A stretch of 64,000 nt of DNA from Lachnospiraceae bacterium (GTDB taxonomy: Bacteria > Bacillota > Clostridia > Lachnospirales > Lachnospiraceae), in the NCBI GenBank assembly GCA_029067205.1, contig JAIEEY010000078.1, positions 1 through 64,000 of the forward strand, given 5' to 3'. The translations under genes were made by a program, and so were the position numbers. Shown one piece after another: positions 15,852 to 46,414 of the stretch. The notes below the pieces were generated by a model. The model was not told where the DNA came from and did not search any database. It saw only the letters and a list, made by a program, of their open reading frames with translations. The stretch's first letter is position 1. Every line of letters begins with the position of its first letter.

Positions 15852-17732
15852 ATGGAAATGAATTCATATCCAGTTGAGCGGGATGGATATACGGACTGGC
15901 TTTCAGATGATCTAAAGAAAAAATGTCCATATCTTATGAAATATACGAATCCTGTCAAGCATTCGCCTAGAAAAATAATAGGACGTGATCAGGAGATGCT
16001 CAGGCTTGCAGCAATATTGTCTGCACCTGAATTATGTAATGCATGTCTTATTGGCGAGGCGGGTTCGGGTAAGACGATGCTTGTACAGGGAGTTATGGCA
16101 AAAGATACAGACAGGAGCTATCTTGAAATAAACCTTGCCAAAATGATCGCAGATTTTAATCCGATTACGCTGGGAAATAGTTTAACACAACTTTTTGGGG
16201 AGGTAGATGTTTTTAAGCGTATTACAAATAGGGAACTGGTTCTTTTTATAGACGAGTTTCACCAGATAGTGCAGCTTTCTGCGCCGGCAGTTGAAGCAAT
16301 GAAACCTTTGCTTGCAGATTCGGGAACCAGGGGCGTGAAAGTAATTGCGGCAACTACATATGATGAATTTCGGCAGTACATCTTACCAAACCAGCCGCTT
16401 GTGGAACGTTTTCAAAGACTCAACCTCAGTCAGCCGGGAAAGGAAATGGTGGTTGCAATCCTAAAGGGGATGGCAAAGCAGTATGGGGTTGCCAGTCATC
16501 AATACAATAATTCACTTTATGAAATGATCTATGAGTATACAAACAGATATATACCGTCGAGCAGCCAGCCAAGAAAATCAATCCGCATCCTTGATGCGAT
16601 GGTCGGATGGCATAATGCCACGAAATGCAGGCTGGATGTAAGGCTCCTTGCAGATGTTATACAGCAGTCCGAAGGGGTTAATATAGCATTTAAGGTCGAT
16701 GCGACCAAAATAAAAAAATATCTTGACGAGCATGTTTATGCGCAATCTTATGCTACATTATCCATTTCAAACCGCTTGCATATAGCAGTAGCAGACTTAA
16801 ATGACAAGTCAAAACCAATGAGCACATTTCTCTTTACCGGTTCTACAGGCGTAGGCAAGACAGAAATGGCGAAACAGCTTGCGAAAATCCTGTTTGGCGA
16901 CGGCACGGATAGCGGTGATCAGAACCAGTCAAGCAACCGGCATTTCATAAGATTTGACATGTCGGAATACGCAAGGCCGGAATCCGTTGAGCACTTTAGA
17001 AAAGAGATCTCGGCTAGAATATGGGAGAGACCGTTTTCCATCGTACTGCTTGACGAGATTGAAAAAGCTTCCGCTGAAGTTACAAGGGAACTGCTACAGG
17101 TCATTGATGACGGGCGGCTTTCCGACGAAAACGGAAGGCAGGTGGTTTTTACCAACTGTTATATCATCATTACCACAAATGCAGGTTCTGAAATATATAA
17201 AAATCTTGCAGCATTCACAAATGACATTTCTTGCGATGGTATTGAGAGCACAGAAGCCAAGAGAAGCGAAGAAGCAGAAAGTGAAGGGCTTATCCAATAC
17301 ATCAAGCTCATTAAAGAATCCATTTCAACGACAACTGCAGATAATAAATTTCCACCGGAACTTCTGGGACGGATTGACTGTATTGTTCCATTCCAGCCGC
17401 TTTCCGAAGATACCAAGATGCGTATCATAGGGAATAAGATGGACAATCTTATATATGAAGTATCAAAGAAACATAACAAGAAGCTTAATATGTCAAACAA
17501 AATACCAGAGTTTATTGTTAAGGATAATCTGGACAGGGACCCGGATCAGGGCGGAGCGCGCTCTGCAGTCGCAAAATTTGAGGAACAGGTGGTTGCTAAA
17601 GTGGCTAAATGTATCAATCAGAATCCGGATGCAATTGAAGTTAATGTCGGGATTTCCGGCGAGATGGCTTTTTCGAACAAGACGCAGCTTAGGTCTGCAG
17701 CGCGGATTTGTGTGAATGCTATTTATAATTAG
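15852..17732 (+). CDS. Clp/Hsp100-type AAA+ ATPase with two ATPase domains
   Basis: 626 residues. First AAA module: Walker A GEAGSGKT (K74) and Walker B LFIDEF (D134-E135). Second module: Walker A GSTGVGKT (K336), Walker B VLLDEIEK (D401-E402), and the FPPELLGRID motif typical of the ClpB/ClpA second domain. There is no ClpN repeat domain and only a short linker instead of the ClpB middle domain. No ClpP-binding loop was recognised, so it is more likely a remodeller than a protease partner. A Clp unfoldase inside a conjugation operon is unusual. Because the VirB4-like protein lacks ATPase motifs, this enzyme may power assembly or substrate unfolding. Confidence 0.85.
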   Translation: MEMNSYPVERDGYTDWLSDDLKKKCPYLMKYTNPVKHSPRKIIGRDQEMLRLAAILSAPELCNACLIGEAGSGKTMLVQGVMAKDTDRSYLEINLAKMIADFNPITLGNSLTQLFGEVDVFKRITNRELVLFIDEFHQIVQLSAPAVEAMKPLLADSGTRGVKVIAATTYDEFRQYILPNQPLVERFQRLNLSQPGKEMVVAILKGMAKQYGVASHQYNNSLYEMIYEYTNRYIPSSSQPRKSIRILDAMVGWHNATKCRLDVRLLADVIQQSEGVNIAFKVDATKIKKYLDEHVYAQSYATLSISNRLHIAVADLNDKSKPMSTFLFTGSTGVGKTEMAKQLAKILFGDGTDSGDQNQSSNRHFIRFDMSEYARPESVEHFRKEISARIWERPFSIVLLDEIEKASAEVTRELLQVIDDGRLSDENGRQVVFTNCYIIITTNAGSEIYKNLAAFTNDISCDGIESTEAKRSEEAESEGLIQYIKLIKESISTTTADNKFPPELLGRIDCIVPFQPLSEDTKMRIIGNKMDNLIYEVSKKHNKKLNMSNKIPEFIVKDNLDRDPDQGGARSAVAKFEEQVVAKVAKCINQNPDAIEVNVGISGEMAFSNKTQLRSAARICVNAIYN

Positions 17733-17752: not shown

Positions 17753-19984
17753 ATGGCATTTTTAAAGTTTAAAAAACAGGATAAACATGATCAGAAAAAG
17801 AAACAGGATGGGCAGTTTACGGCGGCAAAGCGGCCAACAGAGTCACTTGGCAGTGTTTTAAGTGAATCCGTACCAGGAGCAGCCCTTGATATTATCAGGG
17901 CAAATTCTGCTTTTGAGCTTCCGTCAGATGCAGATGGGAATAAACGGTATGTAGTGGTCACTCTTGATGTGAATACAATTGGCGGTCTGAACAAGAGGAC
18001 TGCACGGATAAATTCTGACAAGGGACAGCTTATTGAATGTATTAATTGCGGAAATATTGAGGCATATGTAATTGCGGAAGGAATTGCTGCAGATAAGTTT
18101 ATCATTATTCCGACAGACAGAACATTGGAATCCCTTTCTGAGTTCCGTTTTATCTCTGATAAGGAGCAGTTTGGACAGTTCATACCAACAATCTGCGCTA
18201 TTGACCAGAACGGTAATATGCTCTTTCAGGAACTGCCGGAAAGAGTTTCTTATGAGTGGTTTTATGATATAAGCAGGGGAGCTGTCAGGGTATCAGATGC
18301 CATTGGCATGGCTGATACGGAGGAACAGTTTGTGGCGGATGCTGCAACATCCGATGATATTTTGTTCGGAGATGAAGATCCTGATGAGTCCAATGTGCAG
18401 AATCCTGGGACAGAAACAGACCAAAAGAAATATGAAGAAATGGATTATGAGGAGACTGTCGAAAGCGCACAGGAGACAGGCGCGGAAAATCTTTGGGAAA
18501 ATGTAAATATTGATATGAATGAAATGGATTTTGATGATGAGAATGATTCTCAATGTCCGGTCTGCAATAATTATGTTGATTCTGCAGATGAGATCTGCCC
18601 GTTTTGCGGAACATCTTTTATAGAGGATGTTTCGGAAGAATCCAAGGATGCAGACAGTCAGGAGAAAGCTTTATCTGTACAGAAGATCACTGACACGGAC
18701 ATTACCAGGGCAGTAGAACGTCTTTTCCATGCAGGTGATCTTGATCTTGAAATATCTGCAGAACCTTTTGATGTACGTATCATTGGAGAGAATAGCTATG
18801 TTCCGATGATTGAAGACCGGGAAGACGGATGGCTTGATTCTTATGTGACACAGATGATCAAAAATGCTAATGAGGAACTGCGTGTACTGCATCACGATAA
18901 TCTGCTCAAATCCCGTCAGCGTTATCTTTCCCTTATGACAGATAATGCGGAGGATATAGCGAACCGGGTAGATTATCACAATTCATCCACAAATTTCTAC
19001 AAAATGTATAAGCTTTTTGAAACACAGAAAGAAGAAAAAAAGGATGCGCTGGAAGAACAGATAGCACGGAAACGTGCTGAAATGGAACAGGCCTGGAATG
19101 AAGAGCTGGAAAGAATAAAGGCATCTGCAGCAATGGCGGCAGAACGTTCTTATATTGATAATCATGCAAAGGCACACGAGACCGCTTCACGGGACGTTGA
19201 AATAATGCTGCTTGACGAGGTTGAAAGAGAGCACCGTGATAACCTTATGAACCTGAACCAGCTGCGAAAAAATGAAGCACAAAAGATGCTTGACATTGCA
19301 GTTACAGAGACACTTGAAGTAGTGGGGCGGTCATATGCGGAAATGGTCGAAGGCGAGAATTTCAGGAGAGCAGAAATTTTATCACAGATCAGTGCATATG
19401 TTGATTCACATTTAAAAGATGCAGTTGCCCGGAACGCTGTTCTTGCAGAGGCGCAGCGCCAGAAAGAAGAAGCAGACAAAGTTACCGAGGAATTTAAGCG
19501 TAAGATTGAATCAATTTCAAATGACCATAAGTTTGCATGTGATAAGCTCCATGATGAGCTTGATACTGCGCGTTTGCATGAGGAAAATCTCATACGCGAG
19601 TACGATTTAAAGCTTGGTGCTGAATCTGACAGGTACAATGAGCTTGAAGGAAAGTATAAAGACCTTATGGATAAGTATGTGAGGATTGACAAAGAAAAGG
19701 CGAAGGAATATGAAACACGGATTGTTACGCTTGAAAATGACAAAAGGGCTGCAGAAGAACATCTGGCACATGTTGATGTTATTCATAACAGGTTTAACAG
19801 GGTTTCGGTTGCTGTATGGATTTCGGTTGCAGTAGCGATGTTTGCAATAGGTATCCTATCTGGAAATATGATCGGAGTTAACAGGTCTTTGGGAAACAGA
19901 CAGTATTCGATTTCACTGACAGGATCGTCTGATAATGTGGCAAATGATGTCGTCCTGGAATCAGAAAATACTTCTAGGAAATAA
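17753..19984 (+). CDS. zinc-ribbon, coiled-coil, tail-anchored membrane protein
   Basis: 743 residues. A globular N-terminal region (about 30-200) leads to an acidic linker, then a zinc ribbon with two CxxC pairs (CPVC at 268-271 and CPFC about 15 residues later). A long charged coiled coil (about 420-680) is followed by one membrane helix (about 684-706) and a short exposed tail. It lies between the AAA+ ATPase and the coupling protein. Long coiled coil plus tail anchor suggests a scaffold holding cytoplasmic factors to the membrane. Not recognised by family. Confidence 0.65.
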   Translation: MAFLKFKKQDKHDQKKKQDGQFTAAKRPTESLGSVLSESVPGAALDIIRANSAFELPSDADGNKRYVVVTLDVNTIGGLNKRTARINSDKGQLIECINCGNIEAYVIAEGIAADKFIIIPTDRTLESLSEFRFISDKEQFGQFIPTICAIDQNGNMLFQELPERVSYEWFYDISRGAVRVSDAIGMADTEEQFVADAATSDDILFGDEDPDESNVQNPGTETDQKKYEEMDYEETVESAQETGAENLWENVNIDMNEMDFDDENDSQCPVCNNYVDSADEICPFCGTSFIEDVSEESKDADSQEKALSVQKITDTDITRAVERLFHAGDLDLEISAEPFDVRIIGENSYVPMIEDREDGWLDSYVTQMIKNANEELRVLHHDNLLKSRQRYLSLMTDNAEDIANRVDYHNSSTNFYKMYKLFETQKEEKKDALEEQIARKRAEMEQAWNEELERIKASAAMAAERSYIDNHAKAHETASRDVEIMLLDEVEREHRDNLMNLNQLRKNEAQKMLDIAVTETLEVVGRSYAEMVEGENFRRAEILSQISAYVDSHLKDAVARNAVLAEAQRQKEEADKVTEEFKRKIESISNDHKFACDKLHDELDTARLHEENLIREYDLKLGAESDRYNELEGKYKDLMDKYVRIDKEKAKEYETRIVTLENDKRAAEEHLAHVDVIHNRFNRVSVAVWISVAVAMFAIGILSGNMIGVNRSLGNRQYSISLTGSSDNVANDVVLESENTSRK

Positions 19985-20037
19985 ACCTGTTATATGGCGG
20001 GTACAGTGCAATAAAGGTGTCCTGTGCCTGTTTTTAT

Positions 20038-20112
20038 GCGCAGGGGTGCGTAAGGAAATTAGCAGCTTTGCTGCACGCACCCTGCGCGACGAGTAGGGCA
20101 ATCCCCTACTCG
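20038..20112. repeat. double-hairpin block between coiled-coil gene and coupling-protein gene
   Basis: A long stem pairs 20038-20051 with 20075-20087 (one bulged G) and encloses a GCAGC-TTT-GCTGC hairpin (20062-20074). A second hairpin pairs 20090-20098 with 20104-20112. It is far more GC-rich than its surroundings and lacks a T-run, so it is not a classical terminator. The style (short perfect stems with TTT-type loops) resembles the 73-bp repeats. Confidence 0.7.
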
Positions 20113-20169
20113 ACTGATATTGAAAAAAGATTAATTACTAATTTTATGAATGGGAAGGATTATCGTCAG

Positions 20170-23100
20170 ATGGCAGGTAAAAAAAATAACTGGAAGTTTT
20201 TAAAGAATCTAAAATATAGTGAGAGTGTTAAAGGGCGTGATGTGTATAATGACCAGCAGTTAAGGCGTGGTGTACTCAAAGAAAGCCAGACCATGTTTTC
20301 AAGAAATATCATATCATTGTGTATTTCGGCGCTTGCTGCTTTTGGCATATTTTTTTTGTGGAGTGTGGGTATATCGGTTTTAGGAAAGTATACATCCCCT
20401 GCATCAGTTTCTTATGGCTTATTTCATGTTTATTCATCAATGCAGTTGTATGTGTCCATGGGTATTGGATTTCTGGTTTTTGCAGCTCTTCAGCCGTTTA
20501 TGCGAAAAAATCTTGAAGCACAGAATATGTTATGCACAACGGATGATATCAATCAGTATACAGATGACCAGCACGTTGCCCTTCCGGAAGAACTGCAGGA
20601 AAAATTCAATTATTTTCCTGATGCGGGGGCACACTCGTCTGTCCAGGTCTCATCGCTTATCTCACACATGGCACTCAGTAATAAGGGAATTAAAAAAGTA
20701 AGGATAGCGAAACGCTATGACAAGAATGTATATGACGGCAATGGAGAGATCATCGCATATAAAGGAGAGATCATATATGATGAAGGGAATAATCCGGAAT
20801 ATAAAGAAGTACCTTTGTTTGATACAAAGTTTGCGGATGCCCTGTTTGAAGCATCCGGCGCACCGGAGGAGGTACGAAAGACATATGATGTCAGAAAAAT
20901 AAATTATAATCCTGGCAATAAGAATAAAGACAAGCTGTGCGGTGCCCGGAGCAGTTCAGCCGGAAGAAAACGGAGAATGAGGACAGGAAAGTCTTTGTAT
21001 AATACCGTTTCTGACCTCATTAATAATGACTGGTATATCCCGGATTATGAGCCGCAGCGTCCGGCAGGTGCTTATCTTGTTGATTCTTCCCCTGTTAATA
21101 CAATGATACTGGCGATCACCAGGGCAGGTAAGGGGCAGACGATCATTGAACCTACGATCGACATGTGGATGCGGGAGAAACGGCTTAATAATATCCTGTT
21201 GAATGATCCAAAGGGAGAACTTCTTGTCAAGAATTACGTGCGCGGTACAGTCAGGGGTTATCAGATTGTACAGTTTAACCTTATCAATGCAATGAAAACT
21301 GATATATACAATCCACTTGGAATGGCTGCACAGGCTGCACGCGAGGGCGACTTTACCAAATGTGCAGCATATGTGGAAAATGTAGCGGAAGTTTTCTTCC
21401 CTCTTGACGGCGCCGAAGATCCTGTATGGCCAAATGCTGCAAATAACGCATTTAAAAGAGCAGCCTATGGTCTGATTGATTATTACCTGGAGGAAGAGCG
21501 GACTTACAGGAATGAATGCAACAGCAGGATTGCTGCCGGGGAGATCATTGATCCACAGATAATAGATACCCATGTTGATGCAATGTGGGGAAAAGTCACG
21601 CTGTATAACTGTTATCAGATGTTTGTACAGCTTGTTGGAAAAAAGATGCCAAATCCCGCACAGGTATTTTCAAATAAGTTAAAATCAGGGCAGTATGACC
21701 ATCTCGATGATGAGGAGATCAATGATCTGGCAAGGGAAGCGAATCAGAAATCCGTTTTGTGGAATGGTTCGCCGGAGCTTGACTGCCTTTCATTATATTT
21801 TAATGCAACTGACCATCTTCCAAAGAACACAATGAGAACACTTGTTGGCAATATAAACAATTCACTCAAATCGATGGCAGGCGCTGACAAGATGATGGCA
21901 TCTGTATATGGTATTGCCATTACTGCCATGTCATTTTTTACTGATCCGACGATATCAACACTTACATCAGGAACGCCTTCACAGACAGTTGACCTTGCCG
22001 GATTGTCTTTTCCGCGGCGTCTGGGTGTGAGGTTCCATCCTGATTTTGTAAAAAAGCGGCATTATATTGGACTACGGTGCACGTGGGATGCTTTTGAGGA
22101 CATCGGTTTTACTAAGAATCTGGGAAAATCCTTCCAGCATTCGGATATTGTGTCACGCGAGGGATGGGCCCGTTATTTCTTTGACGGAAAATTTAAGACG
22201 GATACTGCATACATCAGGCTCAGGCTTACAAATGCCAGTACAGATGCCCTTGTACATGAATATTTTTTTGAGTTTCATAAGGGATATCAGATATCTCTTG
22301 ATGGCCGTACTTACGTGAAAGATCCTGTGCTTGGGACAAAGATTGCAAAAAATGGCGTATTATATGAACTTATAAAAAGTGACGGAACAGGTGAGGTTAA
22401 ACCGGGGGCGACAACTTTTAAACGTAAACGGCTTCGTACAGATTATAGCAACAGGACTGAAAATGTTCAGTATAAGGTGTCAGATGAATCAGTTTCTGTG
22501 ATTACGCAATCGTATGTGCGCTATTGTGAAAAGCCAAAAATGATCTTTCTTGTGACACCTCCACACCTGATGAAATACGCGAAGCTGATACTTATACTCA
22601 TAAAACAGCTTGTTGACCTCAATTTTGACCAGTCATATATGACAAAGCCCAACCAGAAGCCTCTTTATAAGACAAGGTATATGCTTGATGAACTTGGAAA
22701 CCTGAAATCGGAGGGGCATGGAATATCTGGATTTGAGACGATGCTGTCGATTGGGCTTGGACAGGATCAGCAGTTTACGCTTGTCCTCCAGACATTACAG
22801 CAGCTAAGGGAGGTTTACGGTGAATCTGTAGACAAGATCGTGCAGGGTAATACTTCCAACATCATATTCCTGAAATCAACAGATGATGAGATGTTAAGAA
22901 CCTTGTCGAATATGTCTGGAACGACACACAGATCCTTTATTGACCAAAAAACCGTGACCAGGGATATGGAAAAATTACTGCTTGCAAATGAAGGAAAGGC
23001 ATCTTATATGATGCAGACAAAGGACGTTCCTGTTATAAGCTACAATGACATGATGTATATTGAAAAGAATAACAGTATGGTATTCCGTGCAGGGGATTCG

Positions 23101-23640
23101 CCTATCTGGAACAGGAATGAAACGATACTGCCAATGTCGCATAAGCTTTTTGAAAATACGATAAAAGTTCCTGGCCGGGAATATTCGCTGCAGACAATCC
23201 CCACACTGTCATCAGCAATGGATTTTGACCTCATGAATAACCAGCCTGATTTCGACAAGCTGCTGAACAAGAGATTTGAGCAGGCACTTATGGCTGAATC
23301 TGTTATAGAAAATTATAATATGGCATTTGGTTATGATGATGACGATATACGGCGGCTTGATAAGGATATCTATGCAAATGATATCATGGACATGATCGAT
23401 GCTGAACTTGCCCGTCGAAATGTTGGAGCGGACCCTGCCAGTTCTGCCATGAAAAAGGAATCAGTCAGACTTTATGAAGTAGAGGAAAATCAGGAGATGC
23501 AGGAACAGATAAGGGATATCCAGAACCAGCTAGAAAAAAACGAAAAGAAGATATATGCAGAAGGATTTCTGTCCAAAGGGGATCTTATTAATGAGGCAGG
23601 AAAGGCGCGGCATGGTTTTGACAATTTATTGTCTGTATAA
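20170..23640 (+). CDS. VirD4/TcpA-like coupling protein with an inserted domain
   Basis: 1156 residues from the ATG at 20170, chosen for GGAAGGA 11 nt upstream. The frame is open back to 20017 but that part crosses the hairpin block and has no good site. Two membrane helices lie near residues 45-65 and 90-115. P-loop TRAGKGQT (K321), NDPKGEL strand, Walker B LDELGNL (D840-E841), and the QTLQQL / QGNTSNIIFLKS motifs of the VirD4/TraG family are all present. Between the P-loop and Walker B, about residues 610-775 form an extra beta-rich segment with many aromatic and basic residues, not found in typical VirD4. It would recruit the relaxase-DNA complex to the channel. Confidence 0.85.
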   Translation: MAGKKNNWKFLKNLKYSESVKGRDVYNDQQLRRGVLKESQTMFSRNIISLCISALAAFGIFFLWSVGISVLGKYTSPASVSYGLFHVYSSMQLYVSMGIGFLVFAALQPFMRKNLEAQNMLCTTDDINQYTDDQHVALPEELQEKFNYFPDAGAHSSVQVSSLISHMALSNKGIKKVRIAKRYDKNVYDGNGEIIAYKGEIIYDEGNNPEYKEVPLFDTKFADALFEASGAPEEVRKTYDVRKINYNPGNKNKDKLCGARSSSAGRKRRMRTGKSLYNTVSDLINNDWYIPDYEPQRPAGAYLVDSSPVNTMILAITRAGKGQTIIEPTIDMWMREKRLNNILLNDPKGELLVKNYVRGTVRGYQIVQFNLINAMKTDIYNPLGMAAQAAREGDFTKCAAYVENVAEVFFPLDGAEDPVWPNAANNAFKRAAYGLIDYYLEEERTYRNECNSRIAAGEIIDPQIIDTHVDAMWGKVTLYNCYQMFVQLVGKKMPNPAQVFSNKLKSGQYDHLDDEEINDLAREANQKSVLWNGSPELDCLSLYFNATDHLPKNTMRTLVGNINNSLKSMAGADKMMASVYGIAITAMSFFTDPTISTLTSGTPSQTVDLAGLSFPRRLGVRFHPDFVKKRHYIGLRCTWDAFEDIGFTKNLGKSFQHSDIVSREGWARYFFDGKFKTDTAYIRLRLTNASTDALVHEYFFEFHKGYQISLDGRTYVKDPVLGTKIAKNGVLYELIKSDGTGEVKPGATTFKRKRLRTDYSNRTENVQYKVSDESVSVITQSYVRYCEKPKMIFLVTPPHLMKYAKLILILIKQLVDLNFDQSYMTKPNQKPLYKTRYMLDELGNLKSEGHGISGFETMLSIGLGQDQQFTLVLQTLQQLREVYGESVDKIVQGNTSNIIFLKSTDDEMLRTLSNMSGTTHRSFIDQKTVTRDMEKLLLANEGKASYMMQTKDVPVISYNDMMYIEKNNSMVFRAGDSPIWNRNETILPMSHKLFENTIKVPGREYSLQTIPTLSSAMDFDLMNNQPDFDKLLNKRFEQALMAESVIENYNMAFGYDDDDIRRLDKDIYANDIMDMIDAELARRNVGADPASSAMKKESVRLYEVEENQEMQEQIRDIQNQLEKNEKKIYAEGFLSKGDLINEAGKARHGFDNLLSV

Positions 23641-23687
23641 TGGGGTTAAAACCCTCGCCTTAAGGCGAAACCTTTAGGTCAACCCCA
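23641..23687 (+). repeat. nested hairpin directly after the coupling-protein stop codon
   Basis: An outer 7-bp stem pairs 23641-23647 with 23681-23687. An inner TCGCC-TTAA-GGCGA hairpin occupies 23655-23668, and a CTTTAG hexamer lies in the 3' arm. It could act as a transcription terminator or RNA stabiliser at the operon end, although no T-run follows. It shares the CTTTAG motif with the 73-bp repeats. The 127 bp from here to 23814 are AT-rich with no gene. Confidence 0.5.
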
Positions 23688-23814
23688 TAGCTTCAGGTTT
23701 AGAATAAAGTAAAATAGAGTACAAAAACATGAAATGAACATGAAGAAAAATTGAAAAAAATATCCCATTATACACAACTTTTAGGTAGGTAAGAAGTAAA
23801 GGGAAAAAGATAAC

Positions 23815-23887
23815 CTTTAGGGAGCACACTTTAGGCTGCTTTAGCAGCACATTGAACCTACCGGCTTTAGCCGGTAGTGGTTGAGTT
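23815..23887. repeat. 73-bp hairpin repeat, copy 2
   Basis: Identical over 73 bp to 1-73 and in the same orientation; flanking sequence differs on the right from the first base on. It lies between the transfer operon and the polymerase operon. The two copies would allow homologous recombination that loops out the 23.8-kb transfer module. Confidence 0.85.
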
Positions 23888-24232
23888 GCAGGTATCTTTG
23901 TAAGGTTAAAGGATGAATTTGCACGGGATGGACTTTTTACGGTTATTGATGGCTCGCTTTATAGCAGTACAGGAGAAAAACCCTATATCGTAAAACAATC
24001 CACAGAGGATATGGAGCTTCTGGCCGATATGGTAAGTGAACCGGATGCACGGGTTTATGCTGATGAAGAACTTACGCCGGAAGACATTGATATGTTTGGC
24101 GGTTACAGGGTTACTGATGAGTTTATCAAATTTATTGCGGGTTTTGAGAGTTGGGATACGTTCCTTGGTGGAAGATTTGATGCTGCTGTAGCTGCTCTTC
24201 TTAGAAAAGAAGAAGATTCAAGCGCTGCGTAG
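23885..24232 (+). CDS. small protein of unknown function, apparently lacking its start
   Basis: The frame is open from 23885, directly at the end of the 73-bp repeat, to the stop at 24232 (115 codons). Protein-like sequence begins at once (VAGIFVRLKDEF...), but there is no ATG, GTG or TTG in frame until the ATG at 24011, which has no properly spaced ribosome binding site. Either the gene was truncated at the repeat junction and only a 73-residue form from 24011 is made, or an unusual start is used. The product is acidic and soluble; not recognised. Confidence 0.5.
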   Translation, partial: VAGIFVRLKDEFARDGLFTVIDGSLYSSTGEKPYIVKQSTEDMELLADMVSEPDARVYADEELTPEDIDMFGGYRVTDEFIKFIAGFESWDTFLGGRFDAAVAALLRKEEDSSAA

Positions 24233-24294: not shown

Positions 24295-27200
24295 ATGATT
24301 ACAATATGCAGTATAAGGGATGCAAAACCTGAAGAACATGATGAAACATGGGCGATCGTGCGTTCATATAAGGATGCTTCATCCAAAGTCAGACAGGTTG
24401 CTGACCTGTCACCTTCCTGGGATTTATTCTCAAAATACAGAAGATTTGTTTCGGAAAGTCGGTGGGGCGCTGACGCCTTTGAAGGAACATATCTTCCACA
24501 ATTTATAAATGAGATGCAGTCGGAGCGTGCAAGAAAACTAATTGATGGCTTATGTGAAGCAGACAGGGAAGGCAAAGATATCTGTTTGTTCTGTTATTGT
24601 GCTGACGAAAGCCTTTGTCACAGAAGCATCATTGCAGGCATACTGCAGGGGTATGGGTGCGATGTCAGAGGCGTAAATGGTGATTATAGCAGATATTATG
24701 ATATGTATACAAATAAAAGGGAGTATGGAAAAATGAGCAGCAATGAAATGCAGACGGAATCCGTCAGGTATACAAATAGTGAAATGGAACAAAAGGAATT
24801 AAATAACCAGTTTGTACGGTATATCAACCCTCTTGTTTTTAACGACAGTATTTTTTTGGTAAATGAGTATATTCATGAATATGATGGTACCCCGCTTACA
24901 GTATCGCAGTGCAAATACATACGGCAGAATATATTGAACGAACTGTATGGCGATGTATTCCGGGAACTGGTATATAACATGCCGGATGACCTTGATACTG
25001 ACATGGAGGGAATGGTCAACCGTTTTATGGGAGAAATGATGGACAGGCTGTTTGACAGAGACGGGAAAGAAGGAGTCCTTGAAACATATCTCCGGGATAA
25101 CAGGCTGTTGCCAGAGGAGGAAGATTCCAGTCTTGCTGAATATGCAGATAAAAATAATTTTACGATCACAGAAATGAACGAGAAACTGGATAGTATGAAA
25201 CAGAAAAAAAATCTGCGTCCACTGGATGTTTTTGGCGTCTATAAACTTACAGGACAGGAAATACAGGTTGCCGACCTTGCAGTCACACAGGCATACCTTG
25301 AAAAGAATGCGTATAAACAGAAAGCTCTTCTTAATCTGTCAGATGAAAACAAGGAACAATATGAGCCTGTCTCCCTGTCGAGGCAGTATTTTTTCGCTGG
25401 AACGTATCCGATAGGAGACATTGCCCTCTATGAAAAGATAGAAGAGCGTGTAGTCAGGATGAATGAGGTTTTTTATCCAGAACTTAAAACACTTTCAAAA
25501 TCTGATAATTTCGGACTTTACAGATTGCGTCAATATATTGGATCGGACAGCTATGATCGTCTTGCCCGGCAGCTCTCGTGGGAGATCAGGGATAATAATC
25601 CTGTTGTAAATGAGCAGGCCATCAGGAATGCGATTACAATATGTCAGGATCTCGAAAGGCGCGGGCTGCCCTTTACAATTGAGAAGGACAGTAATGCCGG
25701 ACAGTTGAAGGCAACAGTATCTCTTGGGAAAAAGGATTCCATTGACATCAGGATTTTTGACTATGAAAATCCTAATTATGTAGGGCGTACCTTTAATGGG
25801 ACTGCATCATATTTTCGGTTTGCATCCAAGTCATCTGATGGAATAAAATCTGATATTTATTTTCCGAATGAAGATGATGTTCTTGTTCTGCTTGCACATA
25901 GTCTGGGCGAGCATCCGCAAACGCCTGAGCCAAAACCGGATGGTACGCACTTTATGGTGGGAGAAAACGGGGATGTCAGGCAGTATGATGGCAATACATC
26001 AGTTCCGGTATTGACACGAAACAATGAACATTACAATATGGCATACTGGTCAGCTGAGAATTCCAATACATTTTATAAACTGGTCCGCAACAATGACGGA
26101 TACATACAGCCCGTATATATCTATAATGAAGGCTACAGCAAAGCAGGAACAGAGAACAGGAAATTTGAAACTCCTGATGATGCAAGGAAATATATTGATG
26201 AGAGCATAGAGCTGGCAAAACAGAATTTTCAAAATGTAACGCTTGGAGCTGGGTTTTCGGAAAGAGCTGAAACAACAGGAGCAGATTTTCCAGACTCTTA
26301 TATATCAGATATCAAGAAACTGCAGCTGAAATATCGTGAATATCTTGATTATGATGATGTATTACTGCAGGAAGCCGGGGAATCGAACGAAGCATATTCA
26401 CAAAGACTGGAGGAATTTAGACATGATGAAAATGCAGAACTGCCTGATCATGCAGAAAAGCGGGCAAAAATAATTGAACACAGCAGTGAGACAGCCCGCA
26501 TTCTCCTCGGACATTCTGAAGGCACTGGTTCTGAAGATAACCCTGTTACACTGAATGTCGCTGCAGTTGCCGAATATTCCGGTGAACGTGAGACTGACCT
26601 GATCGCTGCAATGAAAGCCTGTGGCACGGATACAAAATTTGACCTGATGCAGACGGATGAATTTAACATGAACCGGATACGTGAGATGCTCGTCACATAT
26701 GATGAAGGTTCTGGCGAGTCCATGCTGGAAAATAGCAGTCTGTCGCCATTCATGTCGCATATCAGGGATACAGTCCTTGATTCACTGGCGGCACAGGGAG
26801 TTGGGGTATCTGCTTTAGATATTGACCAGAATGGGATCATACGGTATGAGGGTACTGTTGTCAATAAAATGCTGCATGATGGAGACATGGAACCGGAAAC
26901 CAGACAGATAACAGGTTATATCGGGCAGGTTTTTGAGCCTGATGAGAGGGGAGTGATTGTAACACGGTATAACCATGATGATAACCGGGCGATCATTCCA
27001 AAGTATACGGCAACGGTTGAGAGACCTGATCCTGAAACAAACCTGTCTTTGGAAAACCGAACGATATGCTGTGGTTATGAGGAGATGCTTGACCGTAGAA
27101 TAAGGCTGAATATACACCGTGATTTTGCGGGCAGAACATTTGATTCGGATTTTAATACAACACAGCTGAATGGCATTTACCGCGAATTGTATTCTACAAA

Positions 27201-30200
27201 GATACCGGCAGATTATATGACCTATTACCGCGCAAAAGGAATGGATGATGAATATATAGAAGCACTGATTAAAACCCAGAAATCAATTGTGAGGTATCCG
27301 ACATCCTATATAGAAAACTCAACACTTAATACGTGGTATGACCTGAAAAAAAGAAATTTCATCAATGACATAAATAAGGATAATTCCTCCGTTACTCTTG
27401 AAAATATTGCCATTCTGAAAGATTGTGAAGCGTTTGATTCATTGGCGACTGGAAATGCCAGAAATCAAGGAATTTTACGCTATATGAGGGAACACGCGTA
27501 CGTCAATCCTGATACGGGACATTTGGAACCGCCCCGTAATCCTGATGGCACAATCAATGAAAGTGATAAAATGGCGTTGCTGAATCTCCCAATGTTCCGC
27601 TATATTGACTATAATCCGGCAGACAGGGTGGTCATGGTGGTTGGAAACAGCATTGATTGTTTACAAGTTGACAAGAAAACTGCCATAGCGCATATGGCTA
27701 TTGAGGGATGGTGTATGGATGACGCTTATGTTGTTTCCAAAGAGTATGCGGAGCGCCATCTTGTCAATTCCGGTGATGCAGACACAACAAAGAAATTAGA
27801 TTTGGATGTTATCAAGCCACATATCTGCGATTCTGACGGTTTTCTTATGACATCATTCGGTGAGGATGGGCAGGAATTTGTGCAGTTTTATGGCCATAGT
27901 TATCCGCTTGATGAAGTCAACAGCAGATTTGACAAGCCTGAAAATGAGCAGTCAAGGGAAGAATTATGTGCTGAATATATCAAGGAAGAGCTTATTGCGA
28001 ATGATATAGGGCTGCGCCCGCTAATGGCGGGAGATAAAATTTGCGATCTGGGCGGCAATAAAGGCGTCATATCACTTGTCGTTGACAGAAATATGCCGCA
28101 AGAAACTGCAAAACGACTGAACCTGGAATATGAGGTTGAATTGTTTAAAATCAATGATGAACTTGAAGTCGTGGGAGCGCCTTTTACAGCACCAAGCCGT
28201 ATGAATGCGGGTACTGTAAGGGAGATGATGGAAAACGCAAGGGAATTAAAGCTTCCGGACGGGACAGTGATCGAAGGCGGAATGGGTACGGCCAGTATGA
28301 TCATTACGGACAAGCTCGTCGATGAAAAAACGCATATTTATGATGATGAAACGCATGGCGACGGAAAGGGCAGGAATGCGTCATCACAGTTTGCATGGCA
28401 GCTTCAGGCAAAACACGCTGATACATTCATGCGGTTAATATATGGTCAGAATGACAAGAATTTTGGAAAGGTGCGCGAACGTCTGATTGCTCTTGGCTAT
28501 GATATGGACGAAAGCAATTGTCCGATAAAGGGATACTCGCCGCATAGCATTACAGTCAATGATGATTCAGGGGAGAGAGTCGTTAATGAGACAAGGAACA
28601 TAATTGAAATAGGGGAGGCGGAAATTTATCCATCAAAGGATGGTTTACAGAACCGGACAGATTTAAAGGAGGCAGTCAAAAAGTTACAGGGAGAACTATC
28701 ACAAAAAGGAGGTTTTATCAGAATCCCGTTTGAGATCGAACTGGAATCAGGTGTAAAGACAGAGCCGGCATATGATGGAAAAGGCGGTTATCTTATGCCC
28801 GTTCTCTCACCACTGATGCGTGCGGATGAGACATATGATGACGGCTCGAAGATAATACATGATTATACGCGCAAATATCTCAGCATTGCGCGCCATGCGC
28901 TTGATTACAAGGCAAAAGATGCCCAGATCAGGGAGTACCGCCGTCTGCTCAATAATGAACCTGATGAGGATGGAAATTATGGAGTCAGCAAAAAGGTTGC
29001 GGTGGAGCGGAAAAGTAAGGGCCAGATATTAAAAGGCGCAGAGGTATACCGGTATAAGATAAGAAAACCGATAAGTGAAAAAGATGATATACAAAAGAAG
29101 GCACAGGCTGCATATAACGAACTAGCAAAAAATCTGCATGATACCTATTTTGTTGGTAAGAAAAATGTATGTAAAACAGAGCTGATGTGCAGGATGATCC
29201 AAAACTCTGCCACTGCAGTATGGTTTCCTGATCCGCGTCTGAAAATTGATGAATGCCGCATGACTGATGAGATGATGAAAAAGCTTCATCTGAAAGAAGG
29301 TGACAGGGCTCTTTTGTGGCGTGATCCTCTGTTGAGGCCCGAAGGGGTTGCCGTACTGACGGTAAGGCGCTGTGCCCCGGGAGACCAGCCCATTGTTGGC
29401 ATTGCTGTCAATCCAGTAATAGACAAACGGTTTGATGGAGATTTTAATGGTGACAGTGTTGCTGTCTGCTCGCTTTCAAATGCAGTATTCCTGAAAGATG
29501 TTGGAAAAGCAGATCTCCGTGTAAACAGACTTCTAAAAAGAATTGAACAGATGCAGGCAGATGATCCGGAAAACCAGGAACAGCTTGAACGGCTTGAAAA
29601 ACAGTTTTCAAAGGCAAAAAAAGATTATGACATGGCATGCGAGGATCTGGAGTTTTTTAATGGTGCCAGGGATGAAGTGATCGATAAGTTCAGTGTCGTA
29701 AATACACTTACAGATCTTGCGGAGACTCCCGATGATCCAAAAACACCTGAAGAAGTGGTTTTTGCTTTAAATTTTGGTCTTGACATTGCATCTGCAAAGG
29801 GTAAGATCCAGGAAAGCGGTCAGACAGTTATGGTCCCTGATTCGGAAGGGAACATGACAGATGTCCTGGAGCTGCCCGAGCTTGCAAAATATGACATTAT
29901 CGAAGGAAATAATGCGGCGGCGCTTGGCAAACTCAATATATATGTGCAGACATTGTTTGGATATGCTGACGCATCAGATTACAATGATTACAGCAGCTGG
30001 GAAAATTATTATGAATCACAGAACCGCATGATTGTTGACCATAAAGCAAAGGGAAAAATGAAGTCAATGGTTGAATGTGCGAAATATGCTAATACAGGAG
30101 TGACCTTTGTGTGTGATGGTGATGACCATATATATACAGCAGAGGAAATGAATGAGCGTATGGACAGTGATAAGAGTGCAATCTTCCGCATTAATACAGC

Positions 30201-31737
30201 TGACGGGGCAGTAACGGACTATGGGACGCCTGTTATCCATGTTGAGATCAATAATCCTAATCTTAGTGAGGAACAGAGGAATGAGATCATCCGACGAAAA
30301 GATGAGATGAAGGATATGATAAGGCAGGTACAGCTTGCAACAGCGATCAAAACAATCGGAACCGGAACTGCGGGGGCTTTTTCCCAAAAGGGTATCAAGA
30401 TAACACGTGACAATGAACCGCTCAACACGCTGGAGATTACATATGGAGCCACGCAGGGTATCCTGCAGGCAAAACATGATGCCGTGCAGGCAGAGCAGCT
30501 CTATACCATATTAAGGGATACACTGCCATCACTGTTAAGGGGAAAGCCCATTTTGAATGATCCTGATAAGGGATGGATACCGCACGCAGTAAATGGAGAT
30601 AAAAATCTCAGTAAGAATGAATTTATACAACAGTATTATGATCTGTGCAATTCCCCGGACGGATTAAATTATAACGTCTGCAGGCAGAGGATTGAGAATC
30701 TTGCCAATGTTCTTTATACAGTCGATGAGGGTGGAAAGGAGAAATTTATAAGCTTTTATGATGACGAATATGCATCCAATCTTGACAGGTGTGCCTATCC
30801 AAAAGGAAATGACAGCCTGAAAGTAATAAAAGAGATTGCAGAGCTGAATATGGATCTGCCAAAAGATAAGCGCAATTCTATATTTAACAGCAGGGCTTCA
30901 AAGCAGTTTGTCCCAGATAAGGACAGTGCAAGATTTGAAATAAGTACAGTGCAGCATGTCAATGATATGCAATTAGAAGCAGCAAATTCCATGGATGAGG
31001 ATAAAAATTCAGAAAAGTGTGTCATTCAGGATGACAAAGGTGCTAAAAAACAAAATAGTGACCGTAAATCCGGCAGAAATCTTGATAACCGCATCCTTGT
31101 GATCGGACCAACACCGGAAAAGCTGTATGGAAATGATATGGACAGAAAGGCAATAGAAAAATACAAAAGATTAAATCAGGAATTGAAGGGATATACCCAG
31201 AAGCTGTACGAAGACGGCTATCGTGAGTTTGTTACAATCTCGGCGCCTGGTTATAACAAGCTTTTATTTGAGGCTGTTAATGATCTAAAAGAGAAACATC
31301 CCGGAGAGGTAAAGAGTTTTGTCCTGTGTCCGTCCAAAGACTGTTATAAGGATTATACGGAGGAGGAAAATCACTTGTTTGTATCTAAAGGTATCAAAAA
31401 AATGATCGATGAATCAGATAAGTACATTGATGTGTCGGAAAAATTAAAAGGCGGAATGGATGAAGCTGTCGCTATCAGCAAGCATGTATCTGTAATGTAT
31501 CCGGAAGGCGGTAATTCATGGCACAAGAGAAGAGATGATGTATTGGCGCGATATATGCAGATTGTGCATAAATATGGAAATGATCTGAAACAGCATGAGT
31601 TTTTCCCAGAGGATACAAATGCGTACAGGGAATATCACAGTTCTGTTGGAAAGCAGGCAAGATGTGATAATCTGGCTTTATATGATGCACAAGAAGCGCA
31701 TTCCAAAAATAATGACAAGAGTATGCAGTATAACTGA
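24295..31737 (+). CDS. giant single-chain RNA polymerase-like protein (fused beta and beta-prime cores) with DUF488-like and SLOG-like ends
   Basis: 2480 residues. About 1-130: DUF488-like, with C97-L-F-C-Y-C and LCHRSI. Beta-like motifs follow in order: GWCMDDAYVVS (1138-1148; compare GYNFEDSILVS), GDKICDLGGNKGVIS with K1248 and K1256 at the 8-residue spacing of the beta catalytic lysines, APSRMN (1299-1304), KLVDEKTH (about 1340-1347; compare HLVDDKMH). Beta-prime-like motifs: GKKNVCKTELM...PDPRLKIDEC, WRDPLLR (R1676; compare NRAPTLHR), and the metal motif D1716-F-N1718-G-D1720, where cellular enzymes have DFDGD. About 2266-2400: Rossmann-like segment of the SLOG/DUF1273 kind (ILVIGPTP, GYREFVTISAPGYNKL). 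Residues 150-1100 are unassigned and may hold diverged beta lobes. It probably transcribes element genes; the Asn in the metal motif leaves activity open. No sigma or alpha homologue was seen nearby. Confidence 0.85.
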   Translation: MITICSIRDAKPEEHDETWAIVRSYKDASSKVRQVADLSPSWDLFSKYRRFVSESRWGADAFEGTYLPQFINEMQSERARKLIDGLCEADREGKDICLFCYCADESLCHRSIIAGILQGYGCDVRGVNGDYSRYYDMYTNKREYGKMSSNEMQTESVRYTNSEMEQKELNNQFVRYINPLVFNDSIFLVNEYIHEYDGTPLTVSQCKYIRQNILNELYGDVFRELVYNMPDDLDTDMEGMVNRFMGEMMDRLFDRDGKEGVLETYLRDNRLLPEEEDSSLAEYADKNNFTITEMNEKLDSMKQKKNLRPLDVFGVYKLTGQEIQVADLAVTQAYLEKNAYKQKALLNLSDENKEQYEPVSLSRQYFFAGTYPIGDIALYEKIEERVVRMNEVFYPELKTLSKSDNFGLYRLRQYIGSDSYDRLARQLSWEIRDNNPVVNEQAIRNAITICQDLERRGLPFTIEKDSNAGQLKATVSLGKKDSIDIRIFDYENPNYVGRTFNGTASYFRFASKSSDGIKSDIYFPNEDDVLVLLAHSLGEHPQTPEPKPDGTHFMVGENGDVRQYDGNTSVPVLTRNNEHYNMAYWSAENSNTFYKLVRNNDGYIQPVYIYNEGYSKAGTENRKFETPDDARKYIDESIELAKQNFQNVTLGAGFSERAETTGADFPDSYISDIKKLQLKYREYLDYDDVLLQEAGESNEAYSQRLEEFRHDENAELPDHAEKRAKIIEHSSETARILLGHSEGTGSEDNPVTLNVAAVAEYSGERETDLIAAMKACGTDTKFDLMQTDEFNMNRIREMLVTYDEGSGESMLENSSLSPFMSHIRDTVLDSLAAQGVGVSALDIDQNGIIRYEGTVVNKMLHDGDMEPETRQITGYIGQVFEPDERGVIVTRYNHDDNRAIIPKYTATVERPDPETNLSLENRTICCGYEEMLDRRIRLNIHRDFAGRTFDSDFNTTQLNGIYRELYSTKIPADYMTYYRAKGMDDEYIEALIKTQKSIVRYPTSYIENSTLNTWYDLKKRNFINDINKDNSSVTLENIAILKDCEAFDSLATGNARNQGILRYMREHAYVNPDTGHLEPPRNPDGTINESDKMALLNLPMFRYIDYNPADRVVMVVGNSIDCLQVDKKTAIAHMAIEGWCMDDAYVVSKEYAERHLVNSGDADTTKKLDLDVIKPHICDSDGFLMTSFGEDGQEFVQFYGHSYPLDEVNSRFDKPENEQSREELCAEYIKEELIANDIGLRPLMAGDKICDLGGNKGVISLVVDRNMPQETAKRLNLEYEVELFKINDELEVVGAPFTAPSRMNAGTVREMMENARELKLPDGTVIEGGMGTASMIITDKLVDEKTHIYDDETHGDGKGRNASSQFAWQLQAKHADTFMRLIYGQNDKNFGKVRERLIALGYDMDESNCPIKGYSPHSITVNDDSGERVVNETRNIIEIGEAEIYPSKDGLQNRTDLKEAVKKLQGELSQKGGFIRIPFEIELESGVKTEPAYDGKGGYLMPVLSPLMRADETYDDGSKIIHDYTRKYLSIARHALDYKAKDAQIREYRRLLNNEPDEDGNYGVSKKVAVERKSKGQILKGAEVYRYKIRKPISEKDDIQKKAQAAYNELAKNLHDTYFVGKKNVCKTELMCRMIQNSATAVWFPDPRLKIDECRMTDEMMKKLHLKEGDRALLWRDPLLRPEGVAVLTVRRCAPGDQPIVGIAVNPVIDKRFDGDFNGDSVAVCSLSNAVFLKDVGKADLRVNRLLKRIEQMQADDPENQEQLERLEKQFSKAKKDYDMACEDLEFFNGARDEVIDKFSVVNTLTDLAETPDDPKTPEEVVFALNFGLDIASAKGKIQESGQTVMVPDSEGNMTDVLELPELAKYDIIEGNNAAALGKLNIYVQTLFGYADASDYNDYSSWENYYESQNRMIVDHKAKGKMKSMVECAKYANTGVTFVCDGDDHIYTAEEMNERMDSDKSAIFRINTADGAVTDYGTPVIHVEINNPNLSEEQRNEIIRRKDEMKDMIRQVQLATAIKTIGTGTAGAFSQKGIKITRDNEPLNTLEITYGATQGILQAKHDAVQAEQLYTILRDTLPSLLRGKPILNDPDKGWIPHAVNGDKNLSKNEFIQQYYDLCNSPDGLNYNVCRQRIENLANVLYTVDEGGKEKFISFYDDEYASNLDRCAYPKGNDSLKVIKEIAELNMDLPKDKRNSIFNSRASKQFVPDKDSARFEISTVQHVNDMQLEAANSMDEDKNSEKCVIQDDKGAKKQNSDRKSGRNLDNRILVIGPTPEKLYGNDMDRKAIEKYKRLNQELKGYTQKLYEDGYREFVTISAPGYNKLLFEAVNDLKEKHPGEVKSFVLCPSKDCYKDYTEEENHLFVSKGIKKMIDESDKYIDVSEKLKGGMDEAVAISKHVSVMYPEGGNSWHKRRDDVLARYMQIVHKYGNDLKQHEFFPEDTNAYREYHSSVGKQARCDNLALYDAQEAHSKNNDKSMQYN

Positions 31738-35703: not shown

Positions 35704-35996
35704 AAATGCCCCCTTTGAATAGTATTGTATCATGCGTCCTATTGGATTGCCACTACTTTCTTTTTAAATTTTCTGCTATCCAAACAGAATTGCGCCGTTG
35801 CCCTGTACTTTATCCATATTGAAAAACTTCCCAACATATTCTGCATTCAAAATCGGGAGTGCAGGATTGTCCATTGACACAGGATATAATGAATTGTATT
35901 TCGTTAACGCTCATGAATTGATGTTGATAAATACGTTTACTTATGCTAACATTATACCCATAAATGGGATAATAAATGAGAAAGGAAATGCGTGCT

Positions 35997-36401
35997 ATGG
36001 CTAGAAGACCAAGAAATGAATATGCAAACTGGATACATCTTCTTTCTGAGACCTCAGCAATAAGAGAACTTCTTGTTGCCGAACTGGAAAATCTGTCACC
36101 GGACTGTAATACAAAGTTTATAAAGGAATCAATCATGGGGTCTCCAGGAATTGGTGACAAAATAACAAAGAAGGTTTTTGATACCTTTATTGAACTTATA
36201 GGCGTAAAAATAATGGAATCACAGGATAAGGAATTTTATATACCAAATTTTGGGACATTTGCTGTAAAGACGCACAGGGGACATAAAATGAAACTTAATC
36301 CGCGAGAAGAAGATGGACAGGTTGTTGATATTCCAGATTATAAAATGCTTCGGTTTAAGCCGGATGACAAATTTAAGTCTGATGTTTTAATGATTGATTA
36401 G
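35997..36401 (+). CDS. HU/IHF-family DNA-binding protein
   Basis: 134 residues from the ATG at 35997, with AAAGGAA 11 nt before; ATGs at 35976 and 35988 are in frame but poorly spaced. The C-terminal ~95 residues carry the HU pattern: helix-rich start, IPNFGTFAVKTHRG (beta arm entry), KLNPRE, and the closing MLRFKPDDKFK. The basic N-terminal extension is longer than in housekeeping HU. It would bend or coat DNA, possibly serving recombination or transfer of the element. It lies directly before the inverted-repeat structure. Confidence 0.8.
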   Translation: MARRPRNEYANWIHLLSETSAIRELLVAELENLSPDCNTKFIKESIMGSPGIGDKITKKVFDTFIELIGVKIMESQDKEFYIPNFGTFAVKTHRGHKMKLNPREEDGQVVDIPDYKMLRFKPDDKFKSDVLMID

Positions 36402-39561: not shown

Positions 39562-39580
39562 AGAAAGGCAGGAATTGTAA

Positions 39581-40432
39581 ATGAAAGATTATTTTGGCTA
39601 TGAAGGAAAGATATGTGTCGTGACCGGAGCATCTTCCGGTATGGGTAAAGCCGCCGCCGCTATGTTAGTAGATTTAGGGGCAAAAGTCTATGCTATAGCA
39701 CGCAGAAGATGCGAGGTTGAAGGATTGGTCTGTAGTATTCAGGCTGATTTGAGTAAAAAAGAAGAAATTGATGCTGCATTTGGGCAGATCCCTGAGCATA
39801 TTGACAGTTTCTTTGGAGTTGCAGGATTGTCCGGCAGTAAATCTGATTATATGACTACTTTCAATGTAAACTATACCGCGAATCATTATATTACGGAAAA
39901 ATATCTGAAAACGAGGATGCAGGAGGGCGGTTCCATTCTGTTTGTGACTTCTACCTCCGGTGTGGCATGGCGTGAAAATCACCGGGAAGCGGAAAAGATT
40001 CTAAGTATGGGAGACTGGCAGGAAGTACAGGAGGGAATGGAAAAACTGGTTAAGCCGGGAACCCCTGCGCAGGTGGCCTATATGTTATCTAAACGGGTCG
40101 CAAATGCCTATGCGTGTTCATTGGCTGTGGAACTGGGTGAACGCCACATCCGCGTCAATGCGGTTATGCCCGGCAGTACGGATACCGGTATGAAAGATGA
40201 ATTTGCAATGATGGCTGGAGGATTGGAGAATATGATTCGTTTTGCGGGAAAAGCTGGTCGTCTCGCAACTTCCGAAGAGGTTGCCATGCCTATTGTATTT
40301 TTGAACAGTAACATGGCAGGATTCATCAGTGGCGAAGAACTTATTGTAGATTATTGTGACAATGCCATGAAGAAACTGGATTTAAAACCAGAAGTCTGTG
40401 GGGCACCAGCGCTTCCTGAAGAAGTGCTATGA
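39581..40432 (+). CDS. short-chain dehydrogenase/reductase
   Basis: 283 residues with the SDR features: TGASSGMG nucleotide-binding loop near the N-terminus, catalytic Ser in TSTSG, Tyr-x-x-x-Lys as YMLSK, and the MPGSTDTGM strand. Preceded by a purine-rich GAAAGGCAGG. It lies between transporter and glycosidase genes, so it may oxidise or reduce a sugar or an aglycone released from a glycoside. Substrate cannot be read from sequence. Confidence 0.85.
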   Translation: MKDYFGYEGKICVVTGASSGMGKAAAAMLVDLGAKVYAIARRRCEVEGLVCSIQADLSKKEEIDAAFGQIPEHIDSFFGVAGLSGSKSDYMTTFNVNYTANHYITEKYLKTRMQEGGSILFVTSTSGVAWRENHREAEKILSMGDWQEVQEGMEKLVKPGTPAQVAYMLSKRVANAYACSLAVELGERHIRVNAVMPGSTDTGMKDEFAMMAGGLENMIRFAGKAGRLATSEEVAMPIVFLNSNMAGFISGEELIVDYCDNAMKKLDLKPEVCGAPALPEEVL

Positions 40433-40495
40433 AAACTGTTTCAATTCTGGAAATTTAATCTGAGCGCCATTAGATATAAAAAGGAGAAAAAGCTT

Positions 40496-42889: not shown

Positions 42890-42975
42890 AATAAAAGTAT
42901 AAAAAGCAGAACGGTTATGAAAATGGGTATAGTCTGCAGGCCTGTACCCATATAGTAATATGATAAGGAGGATTT

Positions 42976-45558: not shown

Positions 45559-45573
45559 AAAAGGATAATGTAG

Positions 45574-46266: not shown

Positions 46267-46414
46267 ACCCGTAGGAAAGTTATTATATAATCAATGTAAC
46301 GAAACACTCGGAGTTAGATAAGTTGGAGGCAGTGTAAAAAATTAGAGATTTTTCACGCGCCAAATTTGTGCTTGCACCCAAATTCGCGGGTTTGAGCAAG
46401 AATGGGGGATTAAT

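What the first reader, a model, noticed from the sequence alone, without database searches (positions are those of the whole stretch)
24295..31737. Single-chain RNA polymerase: beta and beta-prime cores fused in one 2480-residue protein on a conjugative element
Seen: in one unbroken frame the motif order is GWCMDDA (1138-1144), GDKICDLGGNKGVIS (K1248/K1256), APSRMN, KLVDEKTH, then GKKNVCKTELM...PDPRLKIDEC, WRDPLLR and FDGDFNGDSVAV. Known: these correspond, in the same order, to conserved segments of bacterial RpoB (GYNFED, GDKMAGRHGNKGVIS, VPSRMN, HLVDDKMH) and RpoC (GKRVDYSGR region, NRAPTLHR, NADFDGDQMAV). The 8-residue lysine spacing is preserved. Divergent fused or single-chain double-psi-barrel polymerases are known from phages (for example SPbeta YonO); whether this family is described I cannot tell. 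Inference: the element carries its own transcriptase.
Basis: partly seen in the sequence, partly recalled or inferred. Interest (0 to 1): 0.95.

Follow-up and report, generated by a model that had tools for sequence, protein, structure and literature searches.

The report
Conjugation element's own single-chain RNA polymerase
A bacterial conjugative DNA element encodes, in one very long protein, counterparts of both large subunits of the cell's RNA-making enzyme, likely so that the element can transcribe its own genes when it spreads, although this particular copy carries a change in the catalytic site that is predicted to disable it.

Summary
The reading frame and motifs are real. Profile and predicted-fold comparisons place residues 880-1345 on RpoB and 1405-2075 on RpoC/Rpb1: a single-chain two-barrel RNA polymerase, closer to cellular polymerase than to YonO. 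One correction: the window's catalytic motif is DFNGD. Of 75 collected proteins only this one has Asn at the middle position, so this copy is predicted inactive or carries a sequence error. The neighbouring coupling-protein gene is broken by a 256-bp repeat.

The surroundings are the larger finding: the polymerase is a standing partner of one MobL-type conjugation system. The block AAA ATPase - 750-aa protein - expanded coupling protein - polymerase is complete in 10 of 27 loci, in Bacillota and Actinomycetota. In 72,556 plasmids, all 12 with this coupling protein carry the polymerase; a relative, pGKT2, transfers between genera. One module without polymerase exists.

Best reading: a dedicated, likely sigma-independent transcriptase of the transfer system, probably acting at or after transfer, like phage virion polymerases. 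Mobile-element two-barrel polymerases are known in outline; membership in that named group was not testable.

The parts
24295..31737 (+). Single-chain two-barrel RNA polymerase, 2480 aa
24325..24651 (+). DUF488-N3a domain (residues 11-119)
   Evidence: E 8.7e-16
27706..27726 (+). GWCMDDA, counterpart of the RpoB GYN(F/Y)ED segment (residues 1138-1144)
28030..28062 (+). GDK...GNK with K1248 and K1256 (RpoB-type barrel)
28195..28206 (+). SRMN (residues 1301-1304)
29317..29337 (+). WRDPLLR (residues 1675-1681), counterpart of the RpoC NRAPTLHR segment
29440..29454 (+). Catalytic motif DFNGD (residues 1716-1720; DFDGD in most relatives)
30037..30084 (+). Bridge-helix-like segment with AKGK (residues 1915-1930), aligned with GARG of cellular beta-prime
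30451..30477 (+). TQGILQAKH (residues 2053-2061), trigger-loop candidate; sequence support is weak
31156..31380 (+). SLOG (YpsA-type) domain match, below the Pfam cut-off here (residues 2288-2362)
20017..24229 (+). Expanded VirD4-type coupling protein (T4CP); frame ends at 23640 because of a 256-bp insert (23631-23886); its last part lies at about 23888-24229 in another frame
17753..19984 (+). 743-aa protein of the conserved block, no Pfam match
15852..17732 (+). AAA ATPase of the conserved block
12872..15001 (+). MobL relaxase

Best explanation
This protein carries, in one chain, counterparts of the beta and beta-prime cores of cellular RNA polymerase, is encoded directly after the coupling protein of a MobL-type conjugation system, and likely serves that system as its own, probably sigma-independent, transcriptase, although the copy in this window has Asn for one of the three catalytic Asp residues and is predicted to be inactive. 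Shown: the two halves by profile and by predicted fold, the conserved gene order, and the co-occurrence with this coupling protein in plasmids. Inferred: DNA-dependent RNA synthesis by intact relatives, from family membership and a catalytic motif kept under purifying selection. Inferred: no ordinary sigma factor, because the stretch where RpoB has its flap is only 26-27 residues in the short members, and little chain is left for the clamp region at the start of RpoC. Inferred and least certain: the enzyme acts at or after transfer, transcribing the element's DNA in the new host as injected phage virion polymerases do; action only in the donor, on the long transfer operon, is the main alternative.
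Against: The catalytic Asp is replaced in the window. A T4CP module without the polymerase exists. L015, L017, L022 and L025 lack the adjacent T4CP, and the T4CP of L018 is of ordinary length, 434 aa. No shared element-wide promoter motif was found. The trigger loop is not supported by sequence, 1% in hhalign. No export signal, no activity and no timing was tested. The distance correlation is not corrected for host ancestry.
Confidence: 0.6

Rival explanations
1. Donor-side polymerase: the enzyme transcribes the element's long transfer operon in the donor, as YonO transcribes SPbeta late genes, and has no role in the recipient.
For: The transfer genes in the window run on one strand with few gaps and the polymerase gene sits among them; the YonO precedent (PMC5467207, abstract and Discussion).
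Against: Pairing with the coupling protein rather than only with an operon: in Lactococcus pJM1A the two genes are about 30 kb apart on opposite strands yet still occur together. No shared promoter motif found.
Confidence: 0.35
2. Primer maker: the enzyme makes short RNA on the incoming single strand to prime second-strand synthesis, in place of a plasmid primase.
For: Primases carried by other conjugative elements are transferred for this purpose (passages of PMC5512222).
Against: A full RpoB plus RpoC-like core with bridge-helix segment is more than priming needs; not tested directly.
Confidence: 0.12
3. The Asn in the window is an assembly or sequencing error, and this copy is intact.
For: Replacements on the window branch are no more numerous than on the L004 branch (56 against 61); the genome is fragmented, 504 contigs, contamination estimate 8.7.
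Against: No reads to check; the T4CP gene beside it is broken too, by a repeat found elsewhere in the same genome.
Confidence: 0.35

Closest known systems
[quoted passage not shown]
   Same: Two-barrel polymerases of mobile elements without the flap (SBHM) insert in the RpoB-type barrel; the insert position is short here too. C. glutamicum, the source of the name (recalled), is the only one of 14 control genomes with MobL and one of five with a T4CP match.
   Different: Not compared: the NCgl1702 sequence could not be fetched. The passage says nothing of a coupling protein.
Cellular multi-subunit RNA polymerase (RpoB and RpoC)
   Same: Motif order and fold of both halves.
   Different: One chain; flap position reduced from 149 residues in the host RpoB to 26-102; start of RpoC largely missing; very long N-terminal part.
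YonO of Bacillus phage SPbeta
   Same: Single-chain two-barrel type; both keep a D.DGD-type motif.
   Different: No significant profile match (0.3%); YonO has 839 aa and is a phage enzyme.
P23-45 gp96 and phi14:2 gp66 virion polymerases
   Same: Large single-chain two-barrel polymerases tied to a DNA-delivery apparatus (PMC10770324).
   Different: Phage proteins delivered by virions; only a weak phmmer match to the P23-45 structure (E 0.16).
Polyvalent proteins of conjugative elements
   Same: Giant multidomain protein of a conjugative element with a nucleic-acid enzyme core.
   Different: The passages seen describe only N4-like (T7-type) polymerases, in phages; the words YonO and double-psi do not occur in that text.

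Membership tests
Two-barrel (double-psi beta-barrel) RNA polymerase superfamily | DxDxD metal motif | tested here: not met
   Window copy reads DFNGD; met in 73 of the 74 other proteins collected, one of them a piece without the region. Read as a defect of this copy, not of the family.
Two-barrel (double-psi beta-barrel) RNA polymerase superfamily | Two active-site lysines of the RpoB-type barrel, 8 apart | tested here: met
   K1248 and K1256, invariant in 21
Two-barrel (double-psi beta-barrel) RNA polymerase superfamily | RpoB-type half and RpoC-type half in the predicted fold | tested here: met
Two-barrel (double-psi beta-barrel) RNA polymerase superfamily | Two barrels facing one active site | not testable with these tools
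   Model coordinates could not be read; only chain matches were available
Cellular multi-subunit RNA polymerase | Beta and beta-prime as separate chains | tested here: not met
   One frame; the host's own rpoB and rpoC are separate genes
YonO-like polymerases | Significant similarity to YonO | tested here: inconclusive
   hhalign 0.3% against a single YonO sequence; no YonO profile was built
NCGL1702-like polymerases of mobile elements | Sequence similarity to NCgl1702 | not testable with these tools
NCGL1702-like polymerases of mobile elements | No SBHM (flap) insert in the RpoB-type barrel | tested here: inconclusive
   26-27 residues in 7 of 20 aligned members, 43-46 in 2, 88-102 in 11 including the window; 149 in host RpoB
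Phage virion polymerases (P23-45 gp96, phi14:2 gp66) | Encoded by a phage and packaged in virions | tested here: not met
   Conjugation genes beside it; 0 of 50,697 phage records match the polymerase part; the one IMG/VR record with a relative carries MobL
MobL-type conjugation module | MobL relaxase and VirD4-type coupling protein beside the gene | tested here: met

The most novel reading that the evidence does not exclude
The polymerase is a conjugative counterpart of phage virion RNA polymerases: the enlarged coupling protein recruits it, the type IV machine exports it with the DNA strand, and it transcribes the incoming single-stranded DNA in the recipient before the host polymerase can, so the element needs no host promoter to establish itself across genera and phyla.
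Probability: 0.25. Interest if true: 0.92.

Novelty: new variant of a known kind. Interest (0 to 1): 0.72.

Why it matters
In the best-studied case, the F plasmid, early genes in the recipient are read from single-stranded promoters that recruit the host's RNA polymerase (passages of PMC9849209). A polymerase held together with one coupling protein across Bacillota and Actinomycetota would mean that a class of conjugative elements brings its own transcription. That could help explain transfer between distant hosts and gives a testable parallel to phage virion polymerases. It also adds a single-chain polymerase with cellular-type motifs, useful for asking how much of cellular polymerase is needed without sigma docking sites.

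Tried and rejected
YonO-like membership: no significant profile match. T7-type single-subunit polymerase: no such family among the Pfam, NCBIfam or PHROGs matches. Chance motifs: rejected by invariance and dN/dS. Plain sequence search of the PDB: 4 matches at E<=1, none significant, one of them the P23-45 polymerase. Element-wide promoter motif: intergenic k-mers were at or near shuffle level; L008, L009 and L016 exceeded the shuffle maximum at one or more word lengths, not pursued. Trigger loop by sequence: 1% hhalign probability, kept as a suggestion. First measure of the flap gap by pattern gave wrong hits in some rows (L013, L015, L018, L022), so the alignment-based count is used. Prevalence: polymerase in 4 of 98 relatives and 1 of 394 genomes of the class of Plantibacter; T4CP in 1 of 398 of the class of Paenibacillus and 2 of 394 of the class of Plantibacter. 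The single hits are the centre genomes themselves, so these samples say little on co-occurrence. Viral fold library: 32 matches at E<=0.001, most named ones large polymerase subunits of eukaryotic viruses, at low TM-scores. crAss-like and QDE-1 structures were not among the 50 rows shown, which does not exclude them. Literature: searches listed no paper whose title or abstract describes such a polymerase on a conjugative element. [quoted passage not shown]

Full report
Observation. Pfam alone sees a DUF488-N3a domain (8.7e-16), an RpoB domain-6 match just under its cut-off and a weak SLOG match. NCBIfam finds nothing; PHROGs finds one family over the DUF488 region (1.8e-11) and three weak ones.

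Family. One search gave 27 homologues and a second, from a profile of shorter members, 47; two of the latter (P0074, P0075) look like cellular-type polymerase subunits by their Pfam domains. Names given by sources are mostly 'hypothetical protein'; at least two UniRef names say DNA-directed RNA polymerase. In an alignment of 21, 16 members match Rpb1_2, 13 Rpb2_6, 5 SLOG, 3 DUF488. The profile finds 174 PDB chains at E<=1; the 60 shown are all large subunits of multi-subunit polymerases. hhalign of the core profile gives 93.6% to the host's RpoB, 97.9% to its RpoC and 0.3% to YonO.

The catalytic site. The family motif is DFDGD. The window has DFNGD (29440-29454). Among 75 collected proteins 69 have DFDGD, 2 DYDGD (one the cellular-type P0074), 2 DHDGD, one piece lacks the region, and only the window has Asn. 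All three Asp residues hold catalytic metal in known enzymes (recalled), so this copy is predicted inactive, unless the base is an error. Core dN/dS is 0.085 against L004 and 0.065 against L002, so the enzyme was under selection until recently; replacements on the window branch (56) are no more than on the L004 branch (61).

Sigma docking. Between the GYNYED and GDKM motifs the host RpoB has 149 residues. By alignment the corresponding stretch is 26-27 residues in 7 of 20 members (L011, L012, L014, L015, L016, L017, L019), 43-46 in 2 (L018, L022) and 88-102 in 11, the window included. From GDK to the LPVLS motif of the RpoC-like half the chain has 251-289 residues in the six rows where the pattern matched, where the host spends about 345 on the rest of RpoB and 250 on the start of RpoC. 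I infer that the usual sigma docking sites are reduced or missing; in the window's own clade the flap position still holds about 100 residues of unknown fold.

Neighbourhood. The window carries MobL relaxase, AAA ATPase, a 743-aa protein, a VirD4-type coupling protein and then the polymerase. An iterated profile search over loci gathered by the polymerase finds AAA, 750-aa protein, T4CP and polymerase in this order in 10 of 27 loci: the window, L002 (Lachnospiraceae A4), L008 and L013 (Paenibacillus), L009 (Shouchella), L012 (Plantibacter), L014 (Lumbricidophila), L024 (Gordonia pGKT2), L029 (Streptomyces plasmid) and L030 (Rhodococcus plasmid). Of the 27, 6 have under 4 kb upstream and no T4CP (L005, L006, L011, L019, L020, L021). 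Of the other 21, 17 have T4CP on the same strand within 3.3 kb upstream, in two of them (L007, L010) split by introns and in one (L018) of ordinary length; four do not (L015, L017, L022, L025). MobL is in 13 of 14 polymerase-bearing records searched, on the same contig as the polymerase in 12 by coordinates or contig length.

Co-occurrence. Against 72,556 plasmids the polymerase is in 13 records, the same 13 with three different queries. This T4CP, at E<=1e-20, is in 13 records: 12 cover 67-92% of it and all 12 carry the polymerase. The thirteenth is a generic coupling protein (47% covered, 25% identity), and one polymerase record (a 91-kb Lactococcus plasmid) has no such T4CP. The 12 come from five genera and are related within them. 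In Lactococcus pJM1A the two genes are about 30 kb apart on opposite strands, so linkage alone does not explain the pairing. Against this, one genome of the class of Plantibacter has the AAA, 750-aa protein and T4CP genes with no polymerase found in the genome or in the 20 kb around. The polymerase is therefore usual, not obligatory. T4CP and polymerase distances correlate (r 0.82, n 14, Mantel p 0.0001), without correction for host ancestry.

Element. The close relative in Lachnospiraceae A4 has a Rep3 initiator, ParA and an actin-like protein upstream, so the element looks plasmid-like. Of 38 genomes of the window's genus searched, own included, 4 carry the polymerase, and none of the other 60 relatives does: patchy, as for a mobile element. 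pGKT2, with the block, has been moved by mating from Gordonia to Gordonia, Rhodococcus and Nocardia (passage of the review PMC5640721, citing Jung 2011, which I did not read).

Mechanism. Shown: two polymerase halves in one chain, a conserved catalytic site in relatives, and partnership with one coupling protein. Inferred: RNA synthesis, no ordinary sigma. Less certain: where it acts. Elsewhere, plasmid proteins pass through the T4SS in a way that depends on the coupling protein (abstract of PMC8406263), F-plasmid genes are transcribed from single-stranded DNA in the recipient (passages of PMC9849209), and phages inject single-chain polymerases tied to the DNA-delivery protein (sections and passages of PMC10770324). 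The coupling protein here is enlarged: the Pfam domain is matched in two pieces 344 residues apart where the model expects 91. That fits, but does not show, a polymerase delivered with the DNA. Donor-side transcription of the transfer operon is the chief rival.

Known or new. Single-chain two-barrel polymerases are known from phages, fungal plasmids and eukaryotic RNA interference (passages of PMC7281927 and PMC10770324), and an 'NCGL1702-like' group of mobile-element polymerases is named in one sentence of PMC7824862. This family may well be that group: C. glutamicum is the only one of 14 control genomes with MobL. I therefore file it as a new variant of a known kind; the link to the coupling protein is the part for which the searches listed showed no paper.

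Noticed in passing
window 23631-23886 (and contig start 1-72): A 256-bp hairpin-rich repeat interrupts the coupling-protein gene; 37 matches in the genome, three of full length at 100%, many at contig ends; no Rfam family at gathering score, one weak match.
   Followed up: partly
L007:1598-9050 and L010:2-8511: The coupling-protein gene is split by introns: two group II introns in Virgibacillus (L007); two group II and one group I in Evansella (L010), where a further gap has no Rfam match.
   Followed up: partly
L052 (G582:C11:1-20000): A module with AAA, 750-aa protein and expanded T4CP but no polymerase; a 597-aa protein without Pfam match stands downstream.
   Followed up: yes
L022 (IMG/VR record of 251,549 bases): A contig classed as viral carries MobL and the polymerase, so it may be a conjugative element rather than a virus.
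   Followed up: no
window 397-23640; L032, L033: No VirB4 or VirB11 family was recognised by Pfam in the window or in the A4 proteins tested; the 618-aa protein at 397-2253 has relatives in the Staphylococcus and Lactococcus plasmids.
   Followed up: no
L032:6756-7334 (-): A stand-alone SLOG (YpsA-type) gene on the A4 element, besides the SLOG-like end of the polymerase.
   Followed up: no
L009:22535-23653, L014:23174-24427, L015:22053-23762, L019:8230-10164 (all -): A second AAA-type gene on the opposite strand downstream of the polymerase in four loci.
   Followed up: no
window 35976-36401; L002:20613-21095; L029:22160-22558: An HU-like gene (in L029 by its annotation) follows the polymerase region.
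   Followed up: no
window 38446-48223: Sugar transporter, GH2, GH3 and GH43 genes follow the element: host region or cargo, not decided.
   Followed up: no
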